From Nonomuraea montanisoli (GTDB taxonomy: Bacteria; Actinomycetota; Actinomycetes; Streptosporangiales; Streptosporangiaceae), in assembly GCF_013363975.1 (NCBI RefSeq), contig NZ_JABWGN010000010.1, positions 62,001 through 126,000 of the forward strand: a stretch of 64,000 nucleotides of DNA, read 5' to 3'. This document shows, one piece after another, positions 14,966-29,030 of this stretch (within the stretch, counting starts at the first letter, position 1; every line of letters begins with the position of its first letter). The notes under the pieces were generated by a model. It had not been told where the DNA came from. It made no database searches and saw only the letters and a list, made by a program, of their open reading frames with translations. The position numbers were made by a program, and so were the translations under genes.

Positions 14966-15640
14966 ATGTCGGAGGCTCGGTTGCCCCCTCTCCTCGACCA
15001 CGAGGCGCTCGAGCGCTCGGCCGTGGTGGCCAACAACCGGATGAATCGCGAGCGCCGGCTCCGCGGCTACGACCGGGAGCTCGGCCTGGACATCGCCGCC
15101 TTCCTGACCTCGCGGCCCGGCGCCAGATGGCTCGACCTGTGCTGCGGCACCGGCCTCGCGCTCTTCGAGGCCGCGCATGCCGTCGCGGGCGAGCTGGAGA
15201 TCGTCGGCGTGGATCTCGTGGACTTCTTCGCCGGCCCGTCGCGCCCGCCACGACTCCGGCTGACCACCGCGTCGGTGACCGCCTGGGAGCCGGCGGGGTC
15301 CTTCGACCTGATCACGTCCGTACACGGGCTGCACTACGTGGGCGACAAGCTCGGCGTGATCGCCCGAGCGGCGGGGTGGCTGACCGCGGACGGGCTGTTC
15401 GTGGCCAACTTCGACGCCCGGAGCATCCGCCGCGACAACGGCGCGCCCGCCGGAGCGCGCCTGACCCACGCGCTGAGGGCCGCCGGCCTCGACTACGACG
15501 CGCGAACGAAGCGGATCCGCTGCGCGGGCCGGCGGGAGGCCGGGCTGCCCTTCACCTTCGTCGGCGCCGATGACCGAGCCGGCCCCAACTACACGGGACA
15601 GCCCGCGGTCGACTCGCACTACGCGGGCCTGGCCGCATGA
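14966..15640 (+). CDS. Class I SAM-dependent methyltransferase
   Basis: 224 residues. Motif I is WLDLCCGTGLALFEAA (about 52-67), followed by an acidic EIVGVDLVDFF strand and LITSVHGLHYVGDK in the motif IV/V position. No N/D-P-P-Y motif is present, so it is unlikely to be an adenine-specific DNA methylase. The first ATG lies right after the tRNA terminator with no ribosome site; the true start might be a little inside, and ATG at the MNRERRLRGYDREL position is an option. It overlaps the next gene by 4 bp (ATGA), so the two are translationally coupled. Substrate unknown. Confidence 0.75.
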   Translation: MSEARLPPLLDHEALERSAVVANNRMNRERRLRGYDRELGLDIAAFLTSRPGARWLDLCCGTGLALFEAAHAVAGELEIVGVDLVDFFAGPSRPPRLRLTTASVTAWEPAGSFDLITSVHGLHYVGDKLGVIARAAGWLTADGLFVANFDARSIRRDNGAPAGARLTHALRAAGLDYDARTKRIRCAGRREAGLPFTFVGADDRAGPNYTGQPAVDSHYAGLAA

Positions 15641-17766
15641 CGCCTTCCTTCACCGCCGCACAGGCCAGGGCGCTGTGCGCGGACGCCGGTCTCCTTCTCG
15701 GCGACGCCCGGGCGCTGCTCGGGGAGCACGCCGAGGCCCTGCGGGCGGTGCGGCGGGCGCTGGCGGACGTGCGGGCCGACCTGTCCCGGACCGAGCTGGC
15801 CTCGATCCCGGTCAGCCGGATCAAGGACGTCACCGGCGGCCGGTTACGGATCGGCACGCTGGAGCGCTCCGGGTACGCGACGGTGCTGCAGGTCCTGGAC
15901 GCCACGCCGTACCGGCTGCAGTTGCTGCCGGGGATCGGGGCGCAGACCGCGGCCCAGGTGCACGCGGCGGCCCGCCAGATCGCCACGGCCGTCGAGCAGG
16001 CGGTCGGCATCCGGCTGGACATCGAGCACCAGGACCGGCACGGCGGCGAGCTCGTGATCGCCCTGCACCGGCTGGTGAACGTCGGCCCCGAGCTGGCCCG
16101 CGCCCTGGAGGCGGCGCGGACGCTGGACACGCGCCTCGACCGGCTGCTGCAGGAGGCGAGACCGGCGCGCAGCAGGCTGCGGATGCTGTTCGCGGGCGGT
16201 GAGCGGCGCGGACAGGCCCAGAGCGCGCTGGCGTCGCTCGCGGATCTGCTCGGCGACGCGCGCGAGACCAGGCTGCTGCTCGCCCAGGCGACCGCGGACC
16301 TGCTGCGGCCCGCGGCGTCGGAGTTCGAGGCGTGGTCGGACTTCGAGCACCGATCGGCGGAGTACTACGGCCTGCTCGCGGAGGTGGCGGGCGAACCGGT
16401 CGCGGCCGACGAAGGAGTCCTGCCCGACGATCTGCTCGCGAAGGTCGGCGCGCAGGACCTCGACGACACCCACCGGCGGGTGTCGTTGCGCGGCTACCAG
16501 TCCTTCGGCGCCCGTTTCGCCCTGGCCCAGCACCGGGTGATCCTCGGGGACGAGATGGGCCTGGGGAAGTCCGTCGAGGCCATCGCCGTTCTGGCCCATC
16601 TGAAGGCGCGCGGGGCCACGCACTTTCTCGTGGTGTGCCCGACGAGCGTGCTCGTCAACTGGGTGCGGGAGATCGAATCGCGCAGCACCCTGGCCGTCCA
16701 TCCCCTCCACGGCCCCGGCCGCGACGCGGCTCGCGAGGAGTGGGTACGGCGGGGCGGGGTCGCCGTGGCGACCCTGGACGGCCTGCACCGCCTCCCGGTG
16801 ACGGAGGTCGGCCTCCTGGTGGTGGACGAGGCGCACTACGTCAAGAATCCGCGAACCAGGCGGGCCGAGGCGGTCGCCGCGTGGTGCCGGCGCACCGAAC
16901 GGGTGCTGTTCCTGACCGGCACGCCGATGGAGAACCGGGTGGAGGAGTTCCGCACGCTGGTCGCGTACCTGCAGCCCGGCCTGGCCGCGGAGCTGCGCGG
17001 CAGCGACGTGGTGGCCGGGGCGCACGCCTTCCGCCGGGCCGTCGCGCCCGTGTACCTGCGTCGCAACCAGCAGGACGTGTTGCGGGAGCTGCCCGGCCGG
17101 GTCGACGTGGAGGAGTGGGTGGAGTTCAGCGGCGCCGACCTCGCCGCCTACCGTCAGGCCGTCGCGGAGGGCAACTTCATGGCCATGCGGCGCGCCGCCT
17201 ACGCCCGCCCCGACACCTCCGCCAAGCTCAAGCGGCTGCTGGAACTGGTGGCGGACGCTCAGGCCAACGGGCTCAAGGTGATCGTCTTCTCCTACTTCCG
17301 CGATGTCCTCGGTGTCGTGCGGACGGCGCTGGACGGTCGCGCCCACGGCCCGATCTCCGGCGCCCTGACGCCGGCGCGTCGCCAGCAGGAAGTGGACGCG
17401 TTCTCCCGGGCCAGGGGGCACGCGGTCCTGCTCAGCCAGATCCAGGCGGGCGGGGTGGGACTCAACCTCCAGGCCGCCTCGGTGGTCATCATGTGTGAGC
17501 CGCAGGTGAAGCCGAGCATGGAGAACCAGGCGGTGGCCCGGGCGCATCGGATGGGTCAGGTACGCACGGTGCAGGTGCATCGTCTGCTGTCCGTGGACGC
17601 CGTCGACCAGCGCATGCTCGACCTCCTGGGCGCCAAGGCGGAGCTGTTCGACGCCTACGCCCGGCGCAGCGACCTGGCCGAGTCCACCGCCGACGCGGTC
17701 GACATCTCCGAGCAGGCGCTGGCCCGGCAGATCGTGGAGGAAGAACAGCGCCGTCTCGCGCTCTGA
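15637..17766 (+). CDS. SNF2-family DNA helicase/translocase with N-terminal HhH-like region
   Basis: 709 residues. The N-terminal 280 residues include a helix-hairpin-helix-like segment (QLLPGIGAQTAAQVHAAA, about 95-112) and helical linkers. The SNF2 motor follows: RVILGDEMGLGKSVEAIAVL (motif I, Walker A), VVCPTSVLVNW, LLVVDEAHYVKN (DEAH box), FLTGTPMENRVEE, then the second RecA lobe with VIVFSYFRDVL, SQIQAGGVGLNLQ and QAVARAHRMGQVRTVQVH (motif VI). It is an ATP-driven double-stranded DNA translocase; it could remodel protein-DNA complexes or act with the coupled methyltransferase. The pairing faintly recalls DISARM-like gene sets, but the other DISARM parts are absent. Confidence 0.85.
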   Translation: MTPSFTAAQARALCADAGLLLGDARALLGEHAEALRAVRRALADVRADLSRTELASIPVSRIKDVTGGRLRIGTLERSGYATVLQVLDATPYRLQLLPGIGAQTAAQVHAAARQIATAVEQAVGIRLDIEHQDRHGGELVIALHRLVNVGPELARALEAARTLDTRLDRLLQEARPARSRLRMLFAGGERRGQAQSALASLADLLGDARETRLLLAQATADLLRPAASEFEAWSDFEHRSAEYYGLLAEVAGEPVAADEGVLPDDLLAKVGAQDLDDTHRRVSLRGYQSFGARFALAQHRVILGDEMGLGKSVEAIAVLAHLKARGATHFLVVCPTSVLVNWVREIESRSTLAVHPLHGPGRDAAREEWVRRGGVAVATLDGLHRLPVTEVGLLVVDEAHYVKNPRTRRAEAVAAWCRRTERVLFLTGTPMENRVEEFRTLVAYLQPGLAAELRGSDVVAGAHAFRRAVAPVYLRRNQQDVLRELPGRVDVEEWVEFSGADLAAYRQAVAEGNFMAMRRAAYARPDTSAKLKRLLELVADAQANGLKVIVFSYFRDVLGVVRTALDGRAHGPISGALTPARRQQEVDAFSRARGHAVLLSQIQAGGVGLNLQAASVVIMCEPQVKPSMENQAVARAHRMGQVRTVQVHRLLSVDAVDQRMLDLLGAKAELFDAYARRSDLAESTADAVDISEQALARQIVEEEQRRLAL

Positions 17767-19031: not shown

Positions 19032-19616
19032 ATGATAGCTGGCGGCCACGGGGTCATGCCAGCATGCCCGGAATCAGGAACCGTGGCGTGTCGGACACCC
19101 GTGCCTAAAACGCCCGGCCAGCAGCGCCAAAACGGCGTTCGCTGGACCGTGTTCACCGGCGTGTCGAACACGTCGGATCTTGCAATGCGGCCTTCGAGGG
19201 CGCTCATCGCGGCGGCGGTGCCGCGCGGGATGCGCCGAGCCGGCGCGCAGAAGGAGTGGCTGCGTGCGCTGAAGGAGGACCTGGAGGTCCTGGACCTGCG
19301 CGTGGACGGCTACTCCAATCTCGTTCGGATTGCGAACGTGATCTGCTGGGCGGCCGACTGGAGGACGATGTGCTCGCGGCCGACAGTCGCGAAGATCATG
19401 GAGCGGACCGGCCTGGGCAAGGCGACCGTGAAGCGCTGGGTCCGCTGGCTCAGAGAACGCGGCTGGCTCGGCGTCGTCGAAGAGGGCACCACCGTCCGCT
19501 ATCGCAAGGGCACGAAAGCGGGCCTGGACGACGACGGTTACGGCAACAGGGCGGCGGTCTGGGTGCTGTGCGCGCCTCGGCGCCCCCGCGAAACCGAAGA
19601 ACGATCAACCTGCTGA
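19032..19616 (+). pseudogene. Replication-initiator-like protein, HTH part (first half, frame broken)
   Basis: Up to 194 residues. The core from about residue 52 resembles replication/HTH proteins of actinobacterial integrative plasmids: ALKEDLEVLDLRVDGYSNLV, IANVICWAADWRTM, then a winged-helix stretch PTVAKIMERTGLGKATVKRW and ERGWLGVVEEGTTVRYRKGT. The frame stops at 19614-19616 just where such proteins normally continue. The neighbouring frame is open from 19618 onward and encodes the expected basic C-terminal half, so a frameshift close to 19600-19617 has split the gene. The start is uncertain (ATG 19032, 19068 or 19184). Family naming is from memory of similar proteins and is moderate only. 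Confidence 0.5.
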
Positions 19617-19617
19617 C

Positions 19618-20565
19618 CTGCACGACAGCACAAGTGAACCCCCTTCCGTTTCTCTCCTGAGGAGAGAAACAAGAAGTCCCACGCGCACACGCGAGGCAGG
19701 TCCTTCCTCTCGTGATCATTCCCGCATTTCGCCTGCCTGGACCCTGCACGCGACGGCGAGGACCAAACGAGATCGACTCCGGGCCTGCGAGCGGCTTCGC
19801 CAGGAGTCGCTGCCGCTGCGCCGGATGACGGCCTGGTATCTGCGGTGGATGCTGAAGCCCTTCTTCGAGGCGGGATGGACGGTCGCTGACGTGCTGCACG
19901 CCCTCGACGTGCGGGCGGATGACAGCGTGTGGACCTACGCGTGGTCGTCGACCAGCGAGCTGCGGCATGTCCCGGGCTGGGTCCGGCATCGCCTGTCGGC
20001 GTGGCTCGACGAGGACGGCGAGGTCCTGCCGTCGCGCTCGCAGCGAGTGGCGGCGGCTTTGGCCGAACAGCGGGCGGAGCAGGCTGCGCGCAGGCGTGAA
20101 TGGGAGGCGAGGGCGGCCGCGGCCGGCGTCGAGCTGGTGGCGCCCGCGCCCCGAATGAGCCGTGAGGAGGCTCTGGCTCCTGCGCCTGTCGCGGTGCGGC
20201 AGCCGGAGGGGCCGAACGAGGCGTTCAGGCGGGCCCGTGCGGAGGTGGAGCGGCGCCGCCAGGAGCGGGAGGCGCAGATCGCCGCCGCGGCGATGCGCGA
20301 GCGCGAGCAGGAGCGGACTCGCCGGCAGCGGGTGGCGGATGCGGCGGCGGAGGAGGCGATCGCGCGTGCGGCCGTCGAGCGCGAGATGCACGTGCTGGTG
20401 CAGCAGGTGCAGGCTCAGGACGCGGAGCGCGGTGAGAAGGAAGCGAGCCAGCGTGTGATGTCGCTGGCTCGCGCCCGGGCGCGTGCTCGGGCCGAACGCG
20501 CCGCGCGCAATTCAGATGGTTCTCGCGCACCAGGTGTGGACACGGCGCGGGAGTGCGATCGTTGA
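19618..20565 (+). pseudogene. Replication-initiator-like protein, second half
   Basis: Open frame continuous from 19618; the first ATG is at 19825 (MTAWYLRWMLKPFFEAGWTV). After a compact N-terminal segment with conserved Trp residues (SSTSELRHVPGWVRHRLSAW), the protein becomes a long charged helix rich in Arg, Glu and Ala (about 85-230), strongly predicted as coiled coil. It reads in the +1 frame relative to 19032-19616 and most likely was joined to it before a frameshift. It could still be translated alone from 19825. Confidence 0.5.
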
Positions 20566-20572
20566 TGGTGCT

Positions 20573-20845
20573 ATGAGGAGTTCGGCGATCGAGGCATGCC
20601 TGACCCGGCACGCAGCCCCTCGCGAGCGCACCATGGACGACCACATGTTCGTCGTCGGACGTCGCGGGGCCACGGCCACCTTTCGGCTGCAGGACGTGCT
20701 CGCCGACCAGCAGTGGGCGGGCCTGCTCACCCCGGCCGACCGGCGCGGCCTGACCCCGCTGTTCTGGCAGCACGTGCGCCCCTACGGCGAGGTCAGGCTG
20801 AACATGGATGCCCGGCTCCCGATCATCGCAAGAAAGCCTGCCTGA
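20573..20845 (+). pseudogene. Possible C-terminal remnant of a Tn3-like transposase
   Basis: 90 residues with normal high third-position G+C. The segment FRLQDVLADQQWAGLLTPAD and then LTPLFWQHVRPYGEVRLNMD resembles the last part of actinobacterial transposases of the Tn3 type as I remember them, but there is no catalytic D-D-E core in this window. It overlaps no other gene and is followed by a 116-bp gap. If correct, it is a relic of an element that once neighboured the recombinase at 24989. It might instead be an intact small protein of unknown function. Confidence 0.35.
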
Positions 20846-20914
20846 ACCCATCGCCTGGGGTTGGTGCTCGGGAGGCGACCGGTTTCGGGTGAACAGGCGT
20901 TTTCGATGCGTTAG

Positions 20915-20933
20915 CACACATGCGCGTTGTGTG
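20915..20933. promoter_or_regulatory. Dyad before the membrane/STAND operon
   Basis: CACACA-N7-TGTGTG, located 29 bp before ATG 20962. Possible operator for the two-gene unit; no clear -10/-35 pair is visible. The assignment rests only on position and symmetry. Confidence 0.3.
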
Positions 20934-20961
20934 ATCTTGTGATGAGGTCCATCATGCCGAT

Positions 20962-21372
20962 ATGCGCAGGCGCGTACTAATCTGGACCGGCAGCCTGGTC
21001 GCCTTGGCGGCCCTGGCAGGGCTGGGTATCTACCTGTGGCGAGTCGGCTTGGACGACGCCGACAAGCTGGCCAGCGTGTTCGGCTTGTTTGTCGCCCTGG
21101 CCGGCCTAGCGGTCGCGCTGTATGGGCTGATCGCTGACCGTCGTGCCGTCGACGTCGACGTGGACCAGGAGGCCGAGGTCGGCGGGAACGGCGAGGTCTA
21201 TCAGGCCGGCGGCGACATCAACGAGCGACAGGCCAAGCCGTCTTCGGCACCTGACGACCCGGCGAGCAGCGCCAGCCCGGACGGGCGGAAGCAGCCCCGG
21301 GTACGGCAGCGGGCGAAGACCACCGAGAGTGGCCGGTCGTATCAGGCCGGCCGCGACATCAACAAGCGGTGA
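20962..21372 (+). CDS. Two-helix membrane protein with two QAG-type motifs (candidate effector)
   Basis: 136 residues. Helices at about 5-27 and 36-57 form a hairpin in the membrane with a short outer or inner turn; the rest (58-136) is a flexible charged, Pro/Ser-rich cytosolic-looking tail. The tail contains two copies of one motif: GEVYQAGGDINER (77-89) and SGRSYQAGRDINKR (123-136, the extreme C-terminus). The stop overlaps the GTG start of the next gene by 4 bp (GTGA), so synthesis of the two is coupled. The STAND partner carries a related motif near its N-terminus. I infer a membrane-acting effector recruited through motif-motif assembly. I know of no characterised homologue. Confidence 0.75.
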   Translation: MRRRVLIWTGSLVALAALAGLGIYLWRVGLDDADKLASVFGLFVALAGLAVALYGLIADRRAVDVDVDQEAEVGGNGEVYQAGGDINERQAKPSSAPDDPASSASPDGRKQPRVRQRAKTTESGRSYQAGRDINKR

Positions 21373-24300
21373 GCGCCAAACGCGGCTTGAAACGGGTGAG
21401 CCAACAGGCGCACGCCACGGGGCTGGCCCAGGTCTTCCAAGCCGCTGGCAACCAGATCATCTACAAGGATGGGGAGCCGTACCGGTGGGCGTCATGGCCC
21501 TCCCCTGCGCCTCCGCCGGCTAAGGCGCAGGACTGGGAGCAGCCGAGTGATCTGCTGCGGGCGGCCAACGCGGTGGTCGACTTCACAGGCCGTGACGCCT
21601 TGCTGGGGGAACTACACGCGTGGCGGGACAGGGCAGGGGCAAGGGTGGCCGGGCGCGAGGGGGTCGCGGTCGAGCTGATTCACGGGCCGGGTGGGCAGGG
21701 CAAGACCCGGCTGGCCGGCCGGGTGGCCGAGGTGTGGCAGGGCGAGGGGTGGGTGGTGCTGTCGGCCCACCACCGGCGTGACCGCTCTGCCCCCAAGGCC
21801 TTCGCCGTCCCGGACTTTGAGCGGGCGGCCGGGGTGCTGGTCGTGGTGGACTATGCCGAGCGGTGGGACACCGGCGATCTACTGACCCTGCTGGGCGACA
21901 CGCTGATCGGGGGGCGGCTGCCGGTGCGGGTGCTGTTGCTGGCCCGCCCCTCCGGCACCTGGTGGCAGAGCCTGCGCGGCCGTATCAAGCGTGACCTGCA
22001 CGTAACGGCGACCTCGCGCGAGCTGAAGCCATTGGAGAGCGAGGCGGGCATCACCCGCCAGGGCCTGTTCGCCGCGGCCCGCGACCGGTTCGCCGACCTG
22101 CTGGAGCGGCCGGACGCGCGCCAGGTCGACCCGCCGGAGGCGTTGGAGTGGCACGAGGCCTACAGCCTGGTGCTGACCGTACAAATGGCAGCCCTGGCCG
22201 CGGTCCTGACCGCCGGCAGCGGCCAGGGACCGCCCTCCGACCCCGTAGAGGTGTCGCAGGTGCTGCTGGCCCGCGAGCGAGACCACTGGGAGGCGCTGCA
22301 CGATCGCCGAGAGAAGCCGCTGGCGACTTCACCGGACGCGATGGGTCAGCTCGTCTACACCGCCACGCTGACCGGCCGCCTCGGGCATGCCGACGGCCTG
22401 GCGGCTGTGGAAGGTGCCGCGATCGAGTCGCGCGAACACCCCGGGCAACTCCTAAAAGATCACGCCGTGTGCTACCCGCCCTCCGAGACCTTCGGCACGG
22501 CTCAATCTGCGCCGCCTGTTGCAGGAGACGGCGAGATTACAGTGCTGGAACCGCTGTATCCCGACCGGCTAGGAGAAGACTTTCTCGCTCTGTCCACACC
22601 CCGCCATTCCCACGATTTCCCGGCCGATTCCTGGGCCGCACTCGCTCCCGCCCGGCTACTGACCGCACCAGGTGAAGCAAGCGAGCCAGGTGCCGGCAGC
22701 GGTCGCGTGCCGGTGTGGATCCGACATGGGTTGATCACCTTGATCGAAGCCTCCCGCCGCTGGCCGCACCTGGCCCAACGGCAGCTGTATCCGCTACTTA
22801 CCGCCCGCCCCGAACTGGCCCTGCACGCAGGAGGTGCCGCGCTGGCGAGGCTGGCCCGCCTGGACGACATCGACCCGGCGCTGCTGGAGAAGATCGAAGC
22901 GATCCTGCCCGGCCACCGGCACATCGACCTGGACATCGGGATCGCCGCGCTCGCCGTCCGGCTGGCCGAGTATCGACTGCCCGATGCCGACCCTGTTGCT
23001 CGCGCCTACATTCACCACAAGCTGGCGCGCCACCTGTCTAACGCCGGTCTGCATATCCGCGCCTTGGCCGAAGGCCAGGAGGCGACCCGGAGATGGCGCC
23101 GACTGGCCGAGTTCAACCGCGACGCCTACCTACCCGACCTGGCCACCTCGTTGAACAACCAGGCGAACCTGCAGGCCGAGGCCGGGCAGCGCGATGAGGC
23201 GATGCCGATCATTGCGGAAGCCGTCCGCATGCATAGGGAGTTGGCCGAGCTCAACCCGGATGCCTACCTGCCCGGCCTGGCCGCCTCGTTGAACAGCCAC
23301 GCCGCCCTGCTGGCCGAGACCGGGCAGCGCGATGAGGCGGTGCCGATCATTGCGGAAGCCGTCCACATGCATAGGGAGTTGGCCGAGCTCAACCCGGATG
23401 CCTACCTGCCCGGCCTGGCCGTGTCGTTGAACAACCGGGCGAACCTGCTGGCTGAGACGGGGCAGCGACGCGAGGCGGTGCCGATCAGTGCGGAAGCCGT
23501 CTGCCTGCGCCGCGAGCTGGCGGAGCTCAACCGCGCTGCCTACCTGCCCGACCTGGCCGTGTCCTTGTACAGCCACGCGAAGCGGCTGGCCGAGACCGGG
23601 CAGCGCGATGAGGCGGTGCCGATCATTGCGGAAGCCGTCCGCCTGGAAAGGGAGTTGGCCGAGCTCAACCCGGATGCCTACCTGCCCGGCCTGGCCGCCT
23701 CGTTGAACAGCCACGCCGCCCTGCTGGCCGAGACCGGGCAGCGCGATGAGGCGGTGCTGATCAGCGAGGAAGCCGTCTGCCTGCGCCGCGAGCTGGCGGA
23801 GCTCAACCGCGCTGCCTACCTGCCCGACCTGGCCGCCTCGTTGAACAACCACTCTCTGGCGCTGGCCGAGACCGGGCAGCGCGATGAGGCGGTGCTGATC
23901 AGCGAGGAAGCCGTCTGCCTGCGCCGCGAGCTGGTCGAGCTCAACCGCGACGCCTACCTACCCAATCTGGCCACCTCGTTGAACAACCACTCTCTGCGGC
24001 TGGCCGAGACCGGGCAGCGCGATGAGGCGGTGACGGTCAGCGAGGAAGTCCTCCGCCTGCATAGGGAGTTGGTCGAGCTCAACCGCGACGCCTACCTACC
24101 CAATCTGGCCACCTCGTTGAACAACCACGCCGCCCATCTGGCCGAGACCGGACAGCGACGCGAGGCCGTACCGATCAGCGAGGAAACCGTCCGCCTGCGC
24201 CGCGAGCTGGTCGAACTCAACCGCGACGCCTACCTACCCGACCTGGCCGGCTCGTTGAGCAACCACGCCGCCCTGCTGGCCGAGACCAGGCAGCGCCCTG

Positions 24301-24821
24301 GACGGCGAGCAGGGACAGGGTGGCGGTCATGGTGGCGGGGAAAGTTTCGGCGACGGGCACGAGATGAGGCGGTGATGGTCTGCGGGGAAGCCGTCCGCAT
24401 GCATAGGGAGTTGGTCGAGCTCAACCGCGCTGCCTACCTGCCCAACCTGGCCGCCTCGTTGAACAACCACGCGCACCTGCTGGCCGAGACCGGGCAGCGC
24501 GATGAGGCGGTGACGGTCATTGCGGAAGCCGTCCGCTTGTACGGCGAGCTGGTCGAACTCAACCGCGACGCCTACCTACCTGACTACATTCAGAGCCTCA
24601 CCGCATTTGGGAAGGTGCTGGTCGACGGAGCCCGGTTCCGTGAGGCGATTGCCCCCCTGGTTGAGGCGTTCATCGCCGGGGAGCATCTGCCCGAGTACGC
24701 GCAAGGCATCCTCTACCGCGTCGCCGATCTGCTTCATCACGCCTATGTCGCAGACGTCGACGGGGTGAGCGAGGAGTTTCGCAAGGTCACCGGCGAGGAC
24801 GTCCCCGATGAGATGAAGTAA
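21369..24821 (+). CDS. STAND NTPase with C-terminal TPR array (candidate phage/stress sensor)
   Basis: 1150 residues. N-terminal segment AQVFQAAGNQIIYKDG (20-35) echoes the motifs of the upstream protein. Next come the pre-domain FTGRDALLGELHAW (72-85), Walker A GPGGQGKTRLAG (106-117), Walker B VLVVVDYAER (156-165) and a sensor-like LLLARPSGTWW (189-199), which define an NB-ARC/STAND-type ATPase. A helical middle (about 260-540) leads to ten tandem 46-residue TPR units (about 560-1075) of the pattern ETGQRDEAV...AYLPxLAxSLNNHA. Unit 9 contains a 22-codon insertion. The C-terminus (FIAGEHLPEYAQGILYRVAD) is a capping helix region. In this class the repeats sense a trigger, ATP-driven oligomerisation follows and an effector is switched on; here the effector is probably the coupled membrane protein. 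No nuclease or protease domain is fused. Confidence 0.85.
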   Translation: MSAKRGLKRVSQQAHATGLAQVFQAAGNQIIYKDGEPYRWASWPSPAPPPAKAQDWEQPSDLLRAANAVVDFTGRDALLGELHAWRDRAGARVAGREGVAVELIHGPGGQGKTRLAGRVAEVWQGEGWVVLSAHHRRDRSAPKAFAVPDFERAAGVLVVVDYAERWDTGDLLTLLGDTLIGGRLPVRVLLLARPSGTWWQSLRGRIKRDLHVTATSRELKPLESEAGITRQGLFAAARDRFADLLERPDARQVDPPEALEWHEAYSLVLTVQMAALAAVLTAGSGQGPPSDPVEVSQVLLARERDHWEALHDRREKPLATSPDAMGQLVYTATLTGRLGHADGLAAVEGAAIESREHPGQLLKDHAVCYPPSETFGTAQSAPPVAGDGEITVLEPLYPDRLGEDFLALSTPRHSHDFPADSWAALAPARLLTAPGEASEPGAGSGRVPVWIRHGLITLIEASRRWPHLAQRQLYPLLTARPELALHAGGAALARLARLDDIDPALLEKIEAILPGHRHIDLDIGIAALAVRLAEYRLPDADPVARAYIHHKLARHLSNAGLHIRALAEGQEATRRWRRLAEFNRDAYLPDLATSLNNQANLQAEAGQRDEAMPIIAEAVRMHRELAELNPDAYLPGLAASLNSHAALLAETGQRDEAVPIIAEAVHMHRELAELNPDAYLPGLAVSLNNRANLLAETGQRREAVPISAEAVCLRRELAELNRAAYLPDLAVSLYSHAKRLAETGQRDEAVPIIAEAVRLERELAELNPDAYLPGLAASLNSHAALLAETGQRDEAVLISEEAVCLRRELAELNRAAYLPDLAASLNNHSLALAETGQRDEAVLISEEAVCLRRELVELNRDAYLPNLATSLNNHSLRLAETGQRDEAVTVSEEVLRLHRELVELNRDAYLPNLATSLNNHAAHLAETGQRREAVPISEETVRLRRELVELNRDAYLPDLAGSLSNHAALLAETRQRPGRRAGTGWRSWWRGKFRRRARDEAVMVCGEAVRMHRELVELNRAAYLPNLAASLNNHAHLLAETGQRDEAVTVIAEAVRLYGELVELNRDAYLPDYIQSLTAFGKVLVDGARFREAIAPLVEAFIAGEHLPEYAQGILYRVADLLHHAYVADVDGVSEEFRKVTGEDVPDEMK
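23049..24590 (+). repeat. Tandem 138-bp repeats encoding TPR units
   Basis: Ten in-frame units with a 138-bp period (46 codons), seen from recurring GGGCAGCGCGATGAGGCG at about 23183, 23321, 23597, 23735, 23873, 24011 and 24491, and its CGACGCGAG variant at about 23459 and 24149. Units are nearly identical at DNA level, including synonymous sites, which implies recent duplication or gene conversion. Unit 9 is interrupted by 66 bp (24297-24362). Confidence 0.9.
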
Positions 24822-24988
24822 CCGCTGCCCGCCACCAAGGCCTGAGCGCTGCAATTACTCAACCCAGGAACTCGGACGCGATCGCCGCAGTAGCTGCGAT
24901 GGGTTTGCACTACGCCGTCGCCCAGGCCGTCAACCCACAGCCCGCGCCCCCGCGCCTGACTCGCCCCTGGCTCCGCGGGTCTCGAGCC

Positions 24989-25889
24989 TCAGCCGGACGT
25001 GTCCGGCGAGATGCTGCACTGGCCGGCATCGGCCAGCGCGCGATATAGCGAGGCGACCGACGGCGCCCGGCCGGCGTTCTTCCCTGTGGTGATCTTCAGC
25101 TTGGCGGCGATCTCGGGAATCGGGATGCCCTTGGCTCTCAGCGCCTGGGCGAGGGTAAGCATGTCGTCGTCGATGACCTTCGGGCGGCCGCCGTGATGGC
25201 CGCGTGCGGCGGCCGCGTGCTGTCCCTCCAGGGTTTTGTCGCGGATGTAGTCGCGGTCGAGTTGGGCGGAGACGGCCAGGACGGCGAACAGCATCGCGCC
25301 TAGCCCGTTCGGGTCGTAGACGCCGGTCAATGGGCCGGTCAGCAGCTCCAGTTGGATCCCGGCCGCCTGTAGCCCGCCGGCCAGCGCCATCAGCTCGGCG
25401 GCGTTGCGCGCGGGCCGCTTCAGCTCGTGCACGGTGAAGACGACCGTCTGGCCGGGTGCGGCCGACTTGATATCCCGACACAACGCCAGCGCGGCATCCA
25501 GCTCGGGCCGCACCTTGATCCGCGTGGAGATCTTCTCGGCGAAGATCCGCGTGCACCCGGCCAGCGCGCAACGCCAACAGCTGGCTGTCCAGCTCCTGGT
25601 CCTTGGTCGAACAGCGCGCGTATCCGATCCGGATCGCCGGGGCGGACGAAGCGACCTCGGCGGCCGCCACCGGGGCCAGCGCCTGCCAGCGCGCACCCGG
25701 GCGGCGACCGGCCGGAACCGCCACCTCCAGCAGCTCGCGCAGCGCGGGCACCAGGATGAAGCGCGCGGTGTGGTACTTGGAGGCGACCTTCCCACCCCGT
25801 GTCCGGCACGGAGAGGGGGCCATCACCTCGCAACTCGGGCAGTCAAACCGCTCGACCGCCGCGGCGGCCTCCTCCGGTGTCAGCTCCAC
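24989..25889 (-). pseudogene. Serine recombinase (resolvase/invertase type) with N-terminal zinc-finger-like domain, frameshifted
   Basis: From GTG 25889 the first frame encodes RFDCPSCEVMAPSPCRTRGG, a Cys-x2-Cys...Cys zinc-finger-like domain found in front of some actinobacterial recombinases, then the catalytic IRIGYARCSTKDQELDSQLL with the nucleophilic serine in CST. Near 25557-25562 one extra G shifts the frame; the rest (CTRIFAEKISTRIKVRPELD, VFTVHELKRPARN, AVLAVSAQLDRDYIRDKTLE and a C-terminal HTH ending SVASLYRALADAG) continues in the other frame to 24989. Undoing one base would restore a resolvase of about 300 residues with HTH. As it stands the gene is probably inactive, unless the frameshift is a sequencing error or is programmed. 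Confidence 0.8.
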
Positions 25890-27696: not shown

Positions 27697-28008
27697 ATGG
27701 CCCAACGCATTCGTGCCGGCGCAACTACTCGCGGAGAAGGGTGGAAACCCTATAACGGTGGCCACGGCATCTACATCGACGTCGACACTAGCGACGCACG
27801 GTTCCCGACCACCCCCTTCTACTTCACCTCCATCGGCGGCAAGTCCGAACAGTGGGCATTGGTCGGCCCCAGCGCCGTCTACTTCCCCAAGCCCGACGGC
27901 TTTCGGGTTTACGTGCGGTGGAGCGACGGCTCCGCGCTAACCCCCGCCCGAGCCAAGGACAACGAGTGGTACATCAACTGGATCGGCTTCGTGCACGTGG
28001 ACGAATAG
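27697..28008 (+). CDS. Small beta-rich orphan protein
   Basis: 103 residues from ATG 27697, with AGAGGA seven bases upstream. No signal peptide. The sequence is dense in aromatic and short beta segments: GGHGIYIDVDTSDARF, TPFYFTSIGGKSEQW, AVYFPKPDGFRVYVRWSD and DNEWYINWIGFVHVDE. It resembles a beta-sandwich module that I have seen as single or repeated units in diverse proteins, but I cannot name a function. Codon use is normal for a high-G+C host. Likely cargo of the insertion. Confidence 0.6.
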   Translation: MAQRIRAGATTRGEGWKPYNGGHGIYIDVDTSDARFPTTPFYFTSIGGKSEQWALVGPSAVYFPKPDGFRVYVRWSDGSALTPARAKDNEWYINWIGFVHVDE

Positions 28009-28090
28009 CGTCGCGGCGGCCGCTGCTATGCCTGCATGACGCAATGCTGGCGCGCTCGGCGGCCTTCTCCACATCGGCCGGGTCTGCCAG

Positions 28091-28133
28091 GTTGAGGGTG
28101 CCCGTAGTGTCCGAGACCGCGGGCACCCTCAAC
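28091..28133. repeat. 14-bp perfect inverted repeat near the right junction
   Basis: GTTGAGGGTGCCCG (28091-28104) and its complement (28120-28133) around 15 bases. No T-run follows. It lies about 120 bp inside the right edge of the insertion and may be a terminator of the 27697 gene or an element-end structure. I see no gene in 28009-28253. Confidence 0.5.
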
Positions 28134-28253
28134 TCGGGGGTGGGCATCGAGGGCAACCGTGACCGTGACCCCGGCTATGAGCACGCGAAGGCGGCCCCTG
28201 AAACGAGGCGAACCGCGCAGCCTGCTCATCGGACAAGAACTGCGCGAAATCTG

Positions 28254-29030
28254 GCCTGGAACCAGGGGCTCGACCTCTACGGGTACGCCGACAACCGGAT
28301 CATGAAGGCCGCCGAGTACGTCGCGAGGTACAACCTCGGCCAGAGCGTGCCGTTCTCCACCTACACCTGGGGCACCGGCCAGAACTGCGCCCGCCGTGAG
28401 CAGACCGTGATCTCCGACGCCTCCCGGGGCCAGGACCGGCCGGTGTGGGAGCTGCTGTACAACCACTACGCCAACCGCCGGGGCCTGGCGGTGCCGTACA
28501 CCAAGGCGTACGCAGAGCGGGTGCGCGCCGAGGGCGGCGGCGGCGACTACGGGCCCAACAGCGGCGGGTTCGACCAGCTCGGCTTCGGCACGCTCCTCTA
28601 CACCCGCGCCGCCCCCGCCGCCGGCGGCGCCCTCCTCCAGGCGGGCACGTCCCGGCGGCTGCTGTCGGTCAACTTCCCGGAGGAGGGGATCGGCGCCTCC
28701 GGCGCGCCGGCCGTCCTGGGCGAGGCGGTGACGCTGCGGGTCGTGCCGGGCCTGGCCGACGCCGAGGGGTTCTCGTTCGTGGACGGGGACGGGCGCTACC
28801 TGCGGCACAGGGACTTCCGGCTGCGCTTCGACGGCGACGACGGGACGACGCTGTTCGAGCGCGACGCCACCTTCCACGCCCGGGCGGCGGGGACCGGGCG
28901 GCTGCGGCTGGAGTCGGCCAACTACCCGGGCCGGTTCGTCCGGCACCGCCACCACCAGCTCTGGCTCGACAAGGACCAGGACACCTCCGCCTTCCGCGCC
29001 GACAGCACCTTCCGCCCCACCGCTCCCTGA
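28254..29030 (+). pseudogene. 3' part of the interrupted alginate/polysaccharide lyase with AbfB-like domain
   Basis: Resumes the lyase where 17843-18688 breaks off: AWNQGLDLYGYADNRIMKAA, ARYNLGQSVPFSTYTWGTGQ, EGGGGDYGPNSGGFDQLGFG complete the helical lyase fold. A C-terminal domain of about 130 residues follows with SRRLLSVNFPEEG, DGRYLRHRDFRLRF and RLRLESANYPGRFVRHR, an AbfB-type (CBM42-like) carbohydrate-binding beta-trefoil. The upstream in-frame sequence is foreign, so no native start exists. It ends before a strong terminator, as an original gene would. Confidence 0.85.

What the first reader, a model, noticed from the sequence alone, without database searches (positions are those of the whole stretch)
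20962..24821. Two-gene membrane protein + STAND-TPR unit linked by a shared QAG-type motif
The small protein has two membrane helices and two motif copies (GEVYQAGGDINER and GRSYQAGRDINKR, the second at the very C-terminus). The overlapping STAND NTPase has AQVFQAAGNQII near its N-terminus. This is the layout reported for bacterial amyloid-signalling (BASS) pairs, in which an NLR-like receptor's N-terminal motif templates the C-terminal motif of an adjacent effector. The novelty would be an effector that is a bare two-helix membrane protein with a duplicated motif. Seen: motifs, GTGA overlap, Walker A/B, TPRs. Known: NLR-associated amyloid motifs and STAND defence logic. Inferred: that this pair kills or arrests the cell by membrane damage after infection.
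Basis: partly seen in the sequence, partly recalled or inferred. Interest (0 to 1): 0.87.

Follow-up and report, generated by a model that had tools for sequence, protein, structure and literature searches.

The report
Membrane effector paired with NLR-like receptor
A soil bacterium carries two overlapping genes, a tiny two-helix membrane protein and a large sensor protein, that share a short sequence tag of the kind used to switch on cell-death proteins in fungi and animals; related gene pairs suggest the tag is swapped like a plug and socket.

Summary
A 136-aa two-helix membrane protein (20962-21372) overlaps by four bases a 1150-aa STAND-TPR protein (21369-24821). The six orthologous pairs I aligned all keep this 2:1 layout; two further receptors of this type have no effector beside them. 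Of 67 non-redundant two-helix loci, 29 have a P-loop ORF directly downstream, 9 are fused to one, 29 have neither. Tails match receptor N-termini by motif type: 0 of 20,000 permutations reach the observed mean, but the window's own receptor ranks only 7th of 29. The QAG tag also occurs on BELL-like helical proteins, divergent hairpins and a DUF4062 protein. Best reading: an NLR-type receptor that recruits a membrane effector by motif templating, like HET-S/NWD2 and BASS pairs, with a two-helix effector in place of BELL. Amyloid formation, killing and phage defence were not tested. Whether QAG equals a published BASS family could not be checked. Verdict: new variant of a known kind.

The parts
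20962..21372 (+). effector gene: 136-aa two-helix membrane protein
   Evidence: AF2 helices 3-28 and 30-63, tail below pLDDT 50; found in 33 of 118 genomes, the window's own included
20980..21132 (+). conserved two-TM hairpin module (residues ~7-57); N and C termini predicted cytosolic from charge pattern
   Evidence: alignment of 24 sequences, L30, D34, S38 and G41 invariant; topology is inference from R/K placement
21160..21228 (+). motif copy 1 (residues 67-89) VDQEAEVGGNGEVYQAGGDINER
21301..21369 (+). motif copy 2 at the C-terminus (residues 114-136) VRQRAKTTESGRSYQAGRDINKR
21369..21372 (+). GTGA start/stop overlap of the two genes
   Evidence: the same -1 offset in 18 of 29 adjacent pairs
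21369..24821 (+). receptor gene: 1150-aa STAND NTPase with TPRs
21396..21461 (+). receptor N-terminal motif copy (residues 10-31) VSQQAHATGLAQVFQAAGNQII
   Evidence: modelled as strands but at pLDDT 22-47, so not evidence of fold
21684..21707 (+). Walker A, GPGGQGKT
   Evidence: P107 to T113 invariant in 5 of 5 aligned receptors
21834..21854 (+). Walker B, VLVVVDY
   Evidence: V160, D161, Y162 invariant in 5 of 5
23103..24626 (+). TPR array, 138-bp units
   Evidence: 8.7 copies, 85% matches over 23103-24296; helices continue to residue 1086

Best explanation
A two-gene NLR-type signalling pair. The STAND-TPR protein is the receptor: a ligand (unknown, presumably an infection or damage cue) binds the TPRs, the NTPase oligomerises, and the clustered N-terminal 23-residue motifs form a beta-arch/solenoid seed. 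The seed recruits and templates the two matching copies in the cytosolic tail of the small protein, gathering many two-helix hairpins in the membrane, which then permeabilise or depolarise it. Shown: the gene layout, the 2:1 motif layout, matching of motif type between partners, and the same tag on different effector classes. Inferred: amyloid-type templating, oligomer-gated membrane damage, a role in defence.
For: Overlapping genes. Two motif copies in the effector and one in the receptor in 6 of 6 aligned orthologous pairs. Motifs 59% vs linker 23% identical. In 29 adjacent pairs the mean tail/receptor score is 56.4, against 34.4 (sd 2.5) for permuted pairs, 0 of 20,000 reaching it, and 24 of 29 beat shuffled tails at p<0.05. 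The same two-helix module carries different motif types, mostly matched by the neighbouring receptor. Another motif type is shared by related receptors next to two different effector classes: divergent hairpins L112 and L113, BELL-like L114 (p 0.0005 each). The QAG tag on BELL-like and divergent-hairpin proteins matches the adjacent receptor in 10 of 10 loci tested (p 0.0005 each; loci chosen because a QAG-tail query found them). Published BASS logic: NLR N-terminal and effector C-terminal motif in adjacent genes (PMC7889193, passages).
Against: No biochemical test. The match is by motif type, not by individual pair: the own receptor ranks first in 7 of 29 rows, the window's 7th of 29. Five of 29 pairs fail the shuffle test (L040, L041 at 0.063, L048, L053, L063), and so do 4 of 8 receptor-first loci (L115, L117, L118, L119), so a motif type I had read by eye in these and in L040/L048 is unproven. 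29 of 67 loci have no P-loop ORF directly downstream (upstream was not examined and at least L071 ends at its contig edge); 10 of them share the same downstream DNA. Two QAG receptors of the window's type lack an adjacent effector (L110, and L111, whose frame stops early). AF2 gives no reliable structure for the motif. No PADLOC match for either protein at E<=1.
Confidence: 0.62

Rival explanations
1. Membrane anchor, not executioner: the two-helix protein tethers the activated receptor at the membrane through the motif, and the receptor (or a further partner) carries out signalling, for example development or stress control.
For: Nine of 67 loci have the two-helix module fused directly to a P-loop protein, the simplest use of which is anchoring. 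In L226 the ORF next door shows no P-loop yet carries a similar motif by eye.
Against: In the same genetic slot stand BELL-like and other two-helix proteins carrying matched motifs, so the slot looks like one for effectors; the receptor shows no other output domain in Pfam.
Confidence: 0.22
2. The motif mediates an ordinary, stoichiometric protein-protein interaction (beta-augmentation or docking peptide), not amyloid templating.
For: Nothing here shows polymerisation; the motif is short and polar; AF2 does not fold it.
Against: The same kind of motif sits on both partners (homotypic) and is duplicated on the effector as in HET-S. For BASS3, another bacterial motif, passages report amyloids that cross-seed with RHIM and PP (PMC7889193) and foci abolished by proline mutants (PMC9815663).
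Confidence: 0.25
3. The motif resemblance is chance or shared GC-rich low-complexity composition.
For: The linkers are low-complexity and GC-rich; 5 of 29 pairs and 4 of 8 receptor-first loci do not beat shuffled tails.
Against: For the window's pair shuffle p 0.005, and 0 of 20,000 permutations over 29 pairs; motifs conserved across genera while the linker diverges.
Confidence: 0.02

Closest known systems
BASS (bacterial amyloid signalling sequence) NLR/BELL pairs
   Same: Adjacent or overlapping genes, motif at the effector C-terminus and NLR N-terminus, several motif families, filamentous bacteria (PMC7889193, passages); BASS4 is relatively often repeated on the BELL side (PMC8086366, passages).
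   Different: The effector is a ~60-residue two-helix hairpin with no detectable relation to the BELL-like proteins of the same genus (hhalign probability 0.1%). Identity of QAG with any of BASS1-10 was not checkable.
HET-S/NWD2 of Podospora (fungal prion signalling)
   Same: Effector with two C-terminal pseudo-repeats (about 21 residues, recalled) and a STAND receptor with one N-terminal repeat (r1, r2 and r0 named in PMC8086366).
   Different: No Pfam HET-S or HeLo match for the effector at E<=1; its only listed family was DUF3426 at E 0.13.
STAND/NLR antiphage proteins (Avs, bNACHT; recalled)
   Same: STAND sensor thought to be coupled to a killing output.
   Different: Effector encoded separately and linked by a shared motif; no PADLOC match.
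DUF4062 (Swarozyc) NADase defence
   Same: In L187 a DUF4062 protein (Pfam E 4.3e-25) carries a similar ISTGD+QAG tail.
   Different: Different effector, and no STAND ORF was seen directly downstream; the paper's main text has no occurrence of 'amyloid' (PMC13174449).

Membership tests
NLR-associated amyloid-signalling pair (BASS-type) | Effector and NLR-type gene adjacent or overlapping | tested here: met
   GTGA overlap; 29 adjacent and 9 fused of 67 loci
NLR-associated amyloid-signalling pair (BASS-type) | Similar motif at the effector C-terminus and receptor N-terminus | tested here: met
   window's pair p 0.005; six orthologous pairs
NLR-associated amyloid-signalling pair (BASS-type) | Motif forms fibrils and receptor motif seeds effector motif | not testable with these tools
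   bench assay needed
BASS families 1-10 | Match to the published profile HMM of a BASS family | not testable with these tools
   profiles and the defining paper not held; motif strings in no held paper
BELL-domain protein | HeLo-like helical (four-helix) BELL domain | tested here: not met
   two helices in a weak model (mean pLDDT 60); no HeLo-type Pfam match at E<=1; hhalign of 24 two-helix rows against 8 BELL-like rows, probability 0.1%. That the 8 rows are BELL is my own reading; no labelled BELL sequence was at hand
STAND NTPase with TPR | P-loop, Walker B and C-terminal superstructure repeats | tested here: met
Pfam nSTAND_NTPase5 | Score over the curated cut-off | tested here: inconclusive
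   19.7 bits against a cut-off of 34
HET-S prion-forming domain / HeLo | Pfam HET-S or HeLo match | tested here: not met
   none among families listed at E<=1
Known antiphage system (PADLOC 2.0.0, 2023) | Model match | tested here: not met
   0 families for both proteins at E<=1

The most novel reading that the evidence does not exclude
A ~60-residue two-helix hairpin is a minimal, general-purpose membrane executioner of bacterial NLRs, plugged into receptors by exchangeable amyloid-type tags. Some tails are multi-socket: of 10 effectors that carry both ISTGD and QAG motifs and have an adjacent receptor, the receptor carries QAG in 9 and, in 1 (L183), a third motif that the effector also has; ISTGD was seen in none (8 of the 10 tested). 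A spare motif would be left for unlinked receptors, making one effector the common output of several NLRs.
Probability: 0.25. Interest if true: 0.78.

Novelty: new variant of a known kind. Interest (0 to 1): 0.57.

Why it matters
It would add an unrelated, very small membrane effector to bacterial amyloid signalling, and give a natural series in which the effector is constant while the motif changes (or the reverse). That makes the claim that specificity lies in the motif alone directly testable by swapping tails. The 2:1 copy number, kept in the six orthologous pairs aligned, parallels HET-S/NWD2 and points to a common structural reason.

Tried and rejected
Chance motif match: rejected for the QAG type. 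Effector as a BELL protein: not supported. A YGVIG-type motif shared by L040, L048, L115 and L117-L119, which I had read by eye as effector swapping: fails shuffle tests, so I withdraw it as evidence.

Trans-pair test: the two-motif orphan effector (8 genomes) and an unlinked fused two-helix/STAND protein with an ISTGD-like motif (8 genomes at 78% identity or more) coincide in 7 of the 53 same-genus genomes searched (first seen). A recA tree of the 53 puts most of them in one clade; Fitch changes are 3 and 2 (branch supports not inspected). Shared ancestry explains nearly all of it, so it is not counted as evidence. rpoB as marker failed: matched in 39 of 53, often twice.

PDB fold search of the receptor: the 50 rows listed, of 1128 matches at E<=10, are large complexes and TPR proteins, with no NLR among them. 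PDB sequence searches: nothing meaningful for the receptor, no match for the effector. Plasmids: no effector match; receptor relatives in 34 records, 31 Streptomyces, 2 Kitasatospora, 1 chromosome-sized Nonomuraea record (20 rows listed). Phage, viral-contig and E. coli collections were not searched. Amyloid predictors were not run: PMC8086366 (passages) reports that generic ones perform poorly on BASS.

Rows dropped: of the 43 matches, 40 were fetched, plus the window's own; two were not (another part of the L045 gene, and a match with six stops). In one search, 82 loci went to 69 after removing 13 near-duplicates, then L072 and L079 were excluded. Adjacency was scored only downstream, same strand, from -60 to +400 nt, with a P-loop pattern. 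Pairs are not phylogenetically independent (L069, L073, L074 and L078 are close). The six orthologous pairs were chosen for their QAG tail and receptor N-terminus; the more distant QAG-like pairs L066 and L209 were not in that alignment. One search tested 8 receptor-first loci (of 20 fetched) and 11 QAG-tail loci (of the 22 places read).

Papers: PMC7889193, PMC8086366, PMC12261475, PMC8195603, PMC7159879, PMC9815663 and PMC13174449 were seen as matched passages only, the rest as search listings. The BASS defining paper (J Mol Biol 2020, recalled) was not seen.
Full report
Observation. The two ORFs lie where stated, overlap in GTGA, and contain the quoted motifs, P-loop, Walker B and TPRs. The window belongs to a 9.76 Mb genome. 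Its genus is probably Nonomuraea: the same-genus genome G005 has a contig of 113,225 bases whose effector locus is a near-duplicate of one on a Nonomuraea ceibae contig of the same length.

Anatomy. The effector is a hairpin of two helices (3-28 and 30-63, the confident part of an otherwise weak model, mean pLDDT 60 from 9 sequences) with a disordered tail. Arginines at the N-terminus and after helix 2 suggest both ends are cytosolic (inference). The tail carries two copies of a ~23-residue unit, V.Q.A.A...G.V.QAG.DI, and the receptor one copy at residues 10-31. In six orthologous pairs (window, N. ceibae L041, an unnamed same-family genome L045, Sphaerisporangium fuscum L198, Microbispora catharanthi L219, M. 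bryophytorum L221) the 2:1 layout holds in 6 of 6. Mean pairwise identity is 71% in the helical module, 59% in each motif, 23% in the linker between them and 42% in the short stretch before the first. Effector copies match each other in 6 of 6 (shuffle p 0.0005), and in every ortholog at least one copy matches the receptor copy (p 0.0005); single comparisons fail in L045 (copy 1, p 0.13) and L219 (copy 2, p 0.10). The segments were cut around the motif, so these p values are optimistic.

Not every such receptor has its effector. In one search the five closest receptors (61% identity or more, the window's included) are in G000, G005, G064, G049 and G039; the last two (L110, L111) show no adjacent effector on inspection of 1.5 kb upstream, and L111 stops early.

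Relatives of the effector. The module occurs in 33 of 118 genomes (own included) and, with a profile, in 34 of 394 drawn from the class (own included), many of these weak; a pattern scan of named genomes gave 41 loci, all in genera that I know as actinomycetes. Of 67 non-redundant loci, 29 have a P-loop ORF directly downstream (18 of 29 with the 4-nt overlap), 9 are fused to a P-loop protein, 29 have neither. No base rate for random genes was computed.

Motif specificity. Different loci carry different motif types on the same hairpin: QAG; ISTGD (L044); GGTFxAPVTxARDxT (L069, L073, L074, L078); GPNIQIGHAxGDV (L068); RSIxA (L060); GGTFHGPVIQGHTI (L205, L207, L213); VxQVxxVxGDV (L231, L232); VQINxGGxNxQVNHF (L235) (type names are by eye). 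Over 29 adjacent pairs the cognate mean score is 56.4 against 34.4 (sd 2.5) for permuted pairs, 0 of 20,000 permutations reaching it; 24 of 29 pass a shuffle test. A first set of 13 pairs gave the same result (64.5 against 39.1, 0 of 20,000). The specificity is for motif type: the own receptor ranks first in 7 of 29 rows, and the window's own is 7th of 29, because receptors of other QAG pairs score as well or better.

Effector swapping. Eight receptor-first loci were tested. Divergent hairpins L112 and L113 and the BELL-like L114 share an NAVQxGxLNIH-like motif with their receptors (p 0.0005 each), and the two-helix protein in L116 passes with another type; L115, L117, L118 and L119 do not pass (p 0.17-0.37). 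In 10 of 10 loci with a QAG-bearing effector of another class and a QAG receptor (divergent hairpins L176-L178, L180, L186, L189; BELL-like L181, L191, L193, L195) tail and receptor match (p 0.0005 each); these were found with a QAG-tail query, so their passing is partly by selection. A further two-helix type (L182, L184) and a DUF4062 protein (L187, Pfam E 4.3e-25) carry the tail without a STAND directly downstream. QAG receptors include an NB-ARC protein (L066) as well as the window's nSTAND-like type. The tag therefore behaves as a module independent of effector and NTPase class. Classes other than DUF4062 and NB-ARC are by eye, as is the trypsin-like N-terminus seen on some other receptors.

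Mechanism. One homotypic motif, duplicated on the effector, fits motif templating as in HET-S/NWD2 and BASS pairs (PMC7889193 and PMC8086366, passages). That the hairpins then damage the membrane is inference from their location and from the company they keep. AF2 models the receptor N-terminus as short strands, but at pLDDT 22-47, which carries no weight.

Known or new. The logic is known. The two-helix effector I did not find described: passages read name BELL, CHAT and TIR effectors, and none of the titles or abstract openings listed by searches is about it; the lists are capped and the defining BASS paper is not held, so absence is weak evidence. The QAG motif may well be one of the published families.

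Context. The selected ORFs from 19032 to 25795 have third-position GC of 0.82-0.86, against 0.90-0.96 for the five before and 0.93-0.96 for the four after 29150 (27852-29030 has 0.87; ORFs were picked partly by this measure). Upstream lies a fragment matching the last ~40 residues of Tn3 transposases (Pfam E 0.006, NCBIfam E 0.004; both below cut-off but both ending at the profile end) and downstream a resolvase (E 3e-14). This suggests acquisition with a mobile element (inference). A helicase with strong DrmD/DpdE matches lies 3.2 kb upstream; only a few neighbours were scanned, so a defence island is neither shown nor excluded.

Noticed in passing
L042, L046, L047, L049, L051, L052, L055-L059: Eleven orphan two-helix effectors without a P-loop ORF downstream; 10 share the same downstream DNA with L049 (itself included) but none shares its upstream DNA by blastn. 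Eight carry two different motifs in series (ISTGD then QAG).
   Followed up: partly
L183: Effector tail with three motif types in series (ISTGD, QAG, GGDHIEFHHSTF) while the adjacent receptor matches the third (p 0.0005).
   Followed up: partly
L187: DUF4062 protein with an ISTGD+QAG tail but no STAND directly downstream.
   Followed up: partly
L225, L226, L234: Two-helix effectors whose adjacent ORF shows no P-loop pattern in its first 400 residues but carries a similar motif by eye; possible non-NTPase partners.
   Followed up: no
window 23103-24296: TPR units repeat at DNA level (138 bp, 8.7 copies, 85% matches), which would allow copy-number change; an insert near residues 975-994 of the receptor interrupts the array (low pLDDT).
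   Followed up: no
window 15637-17766: SNF2-type helicase with strong PADLOC DrmD (E 2.9e-171) and DpdE matches, after an ORF that looks like a methyltransferase by eye (14966-15640); relation to the pair unknown.
   Followed up: no
window 20483-25795: Tn3 transposase C-terminal fragment before and resolvase after the pair; no clear long terminal inverted repeats among the 25 of 30 pairs listed.
   Followed up: partly
G021 and G034 recA: RecA profile matches stop at position 198 inside frames of 762 and 743 aa, as an intein would give.
   Followed up: no
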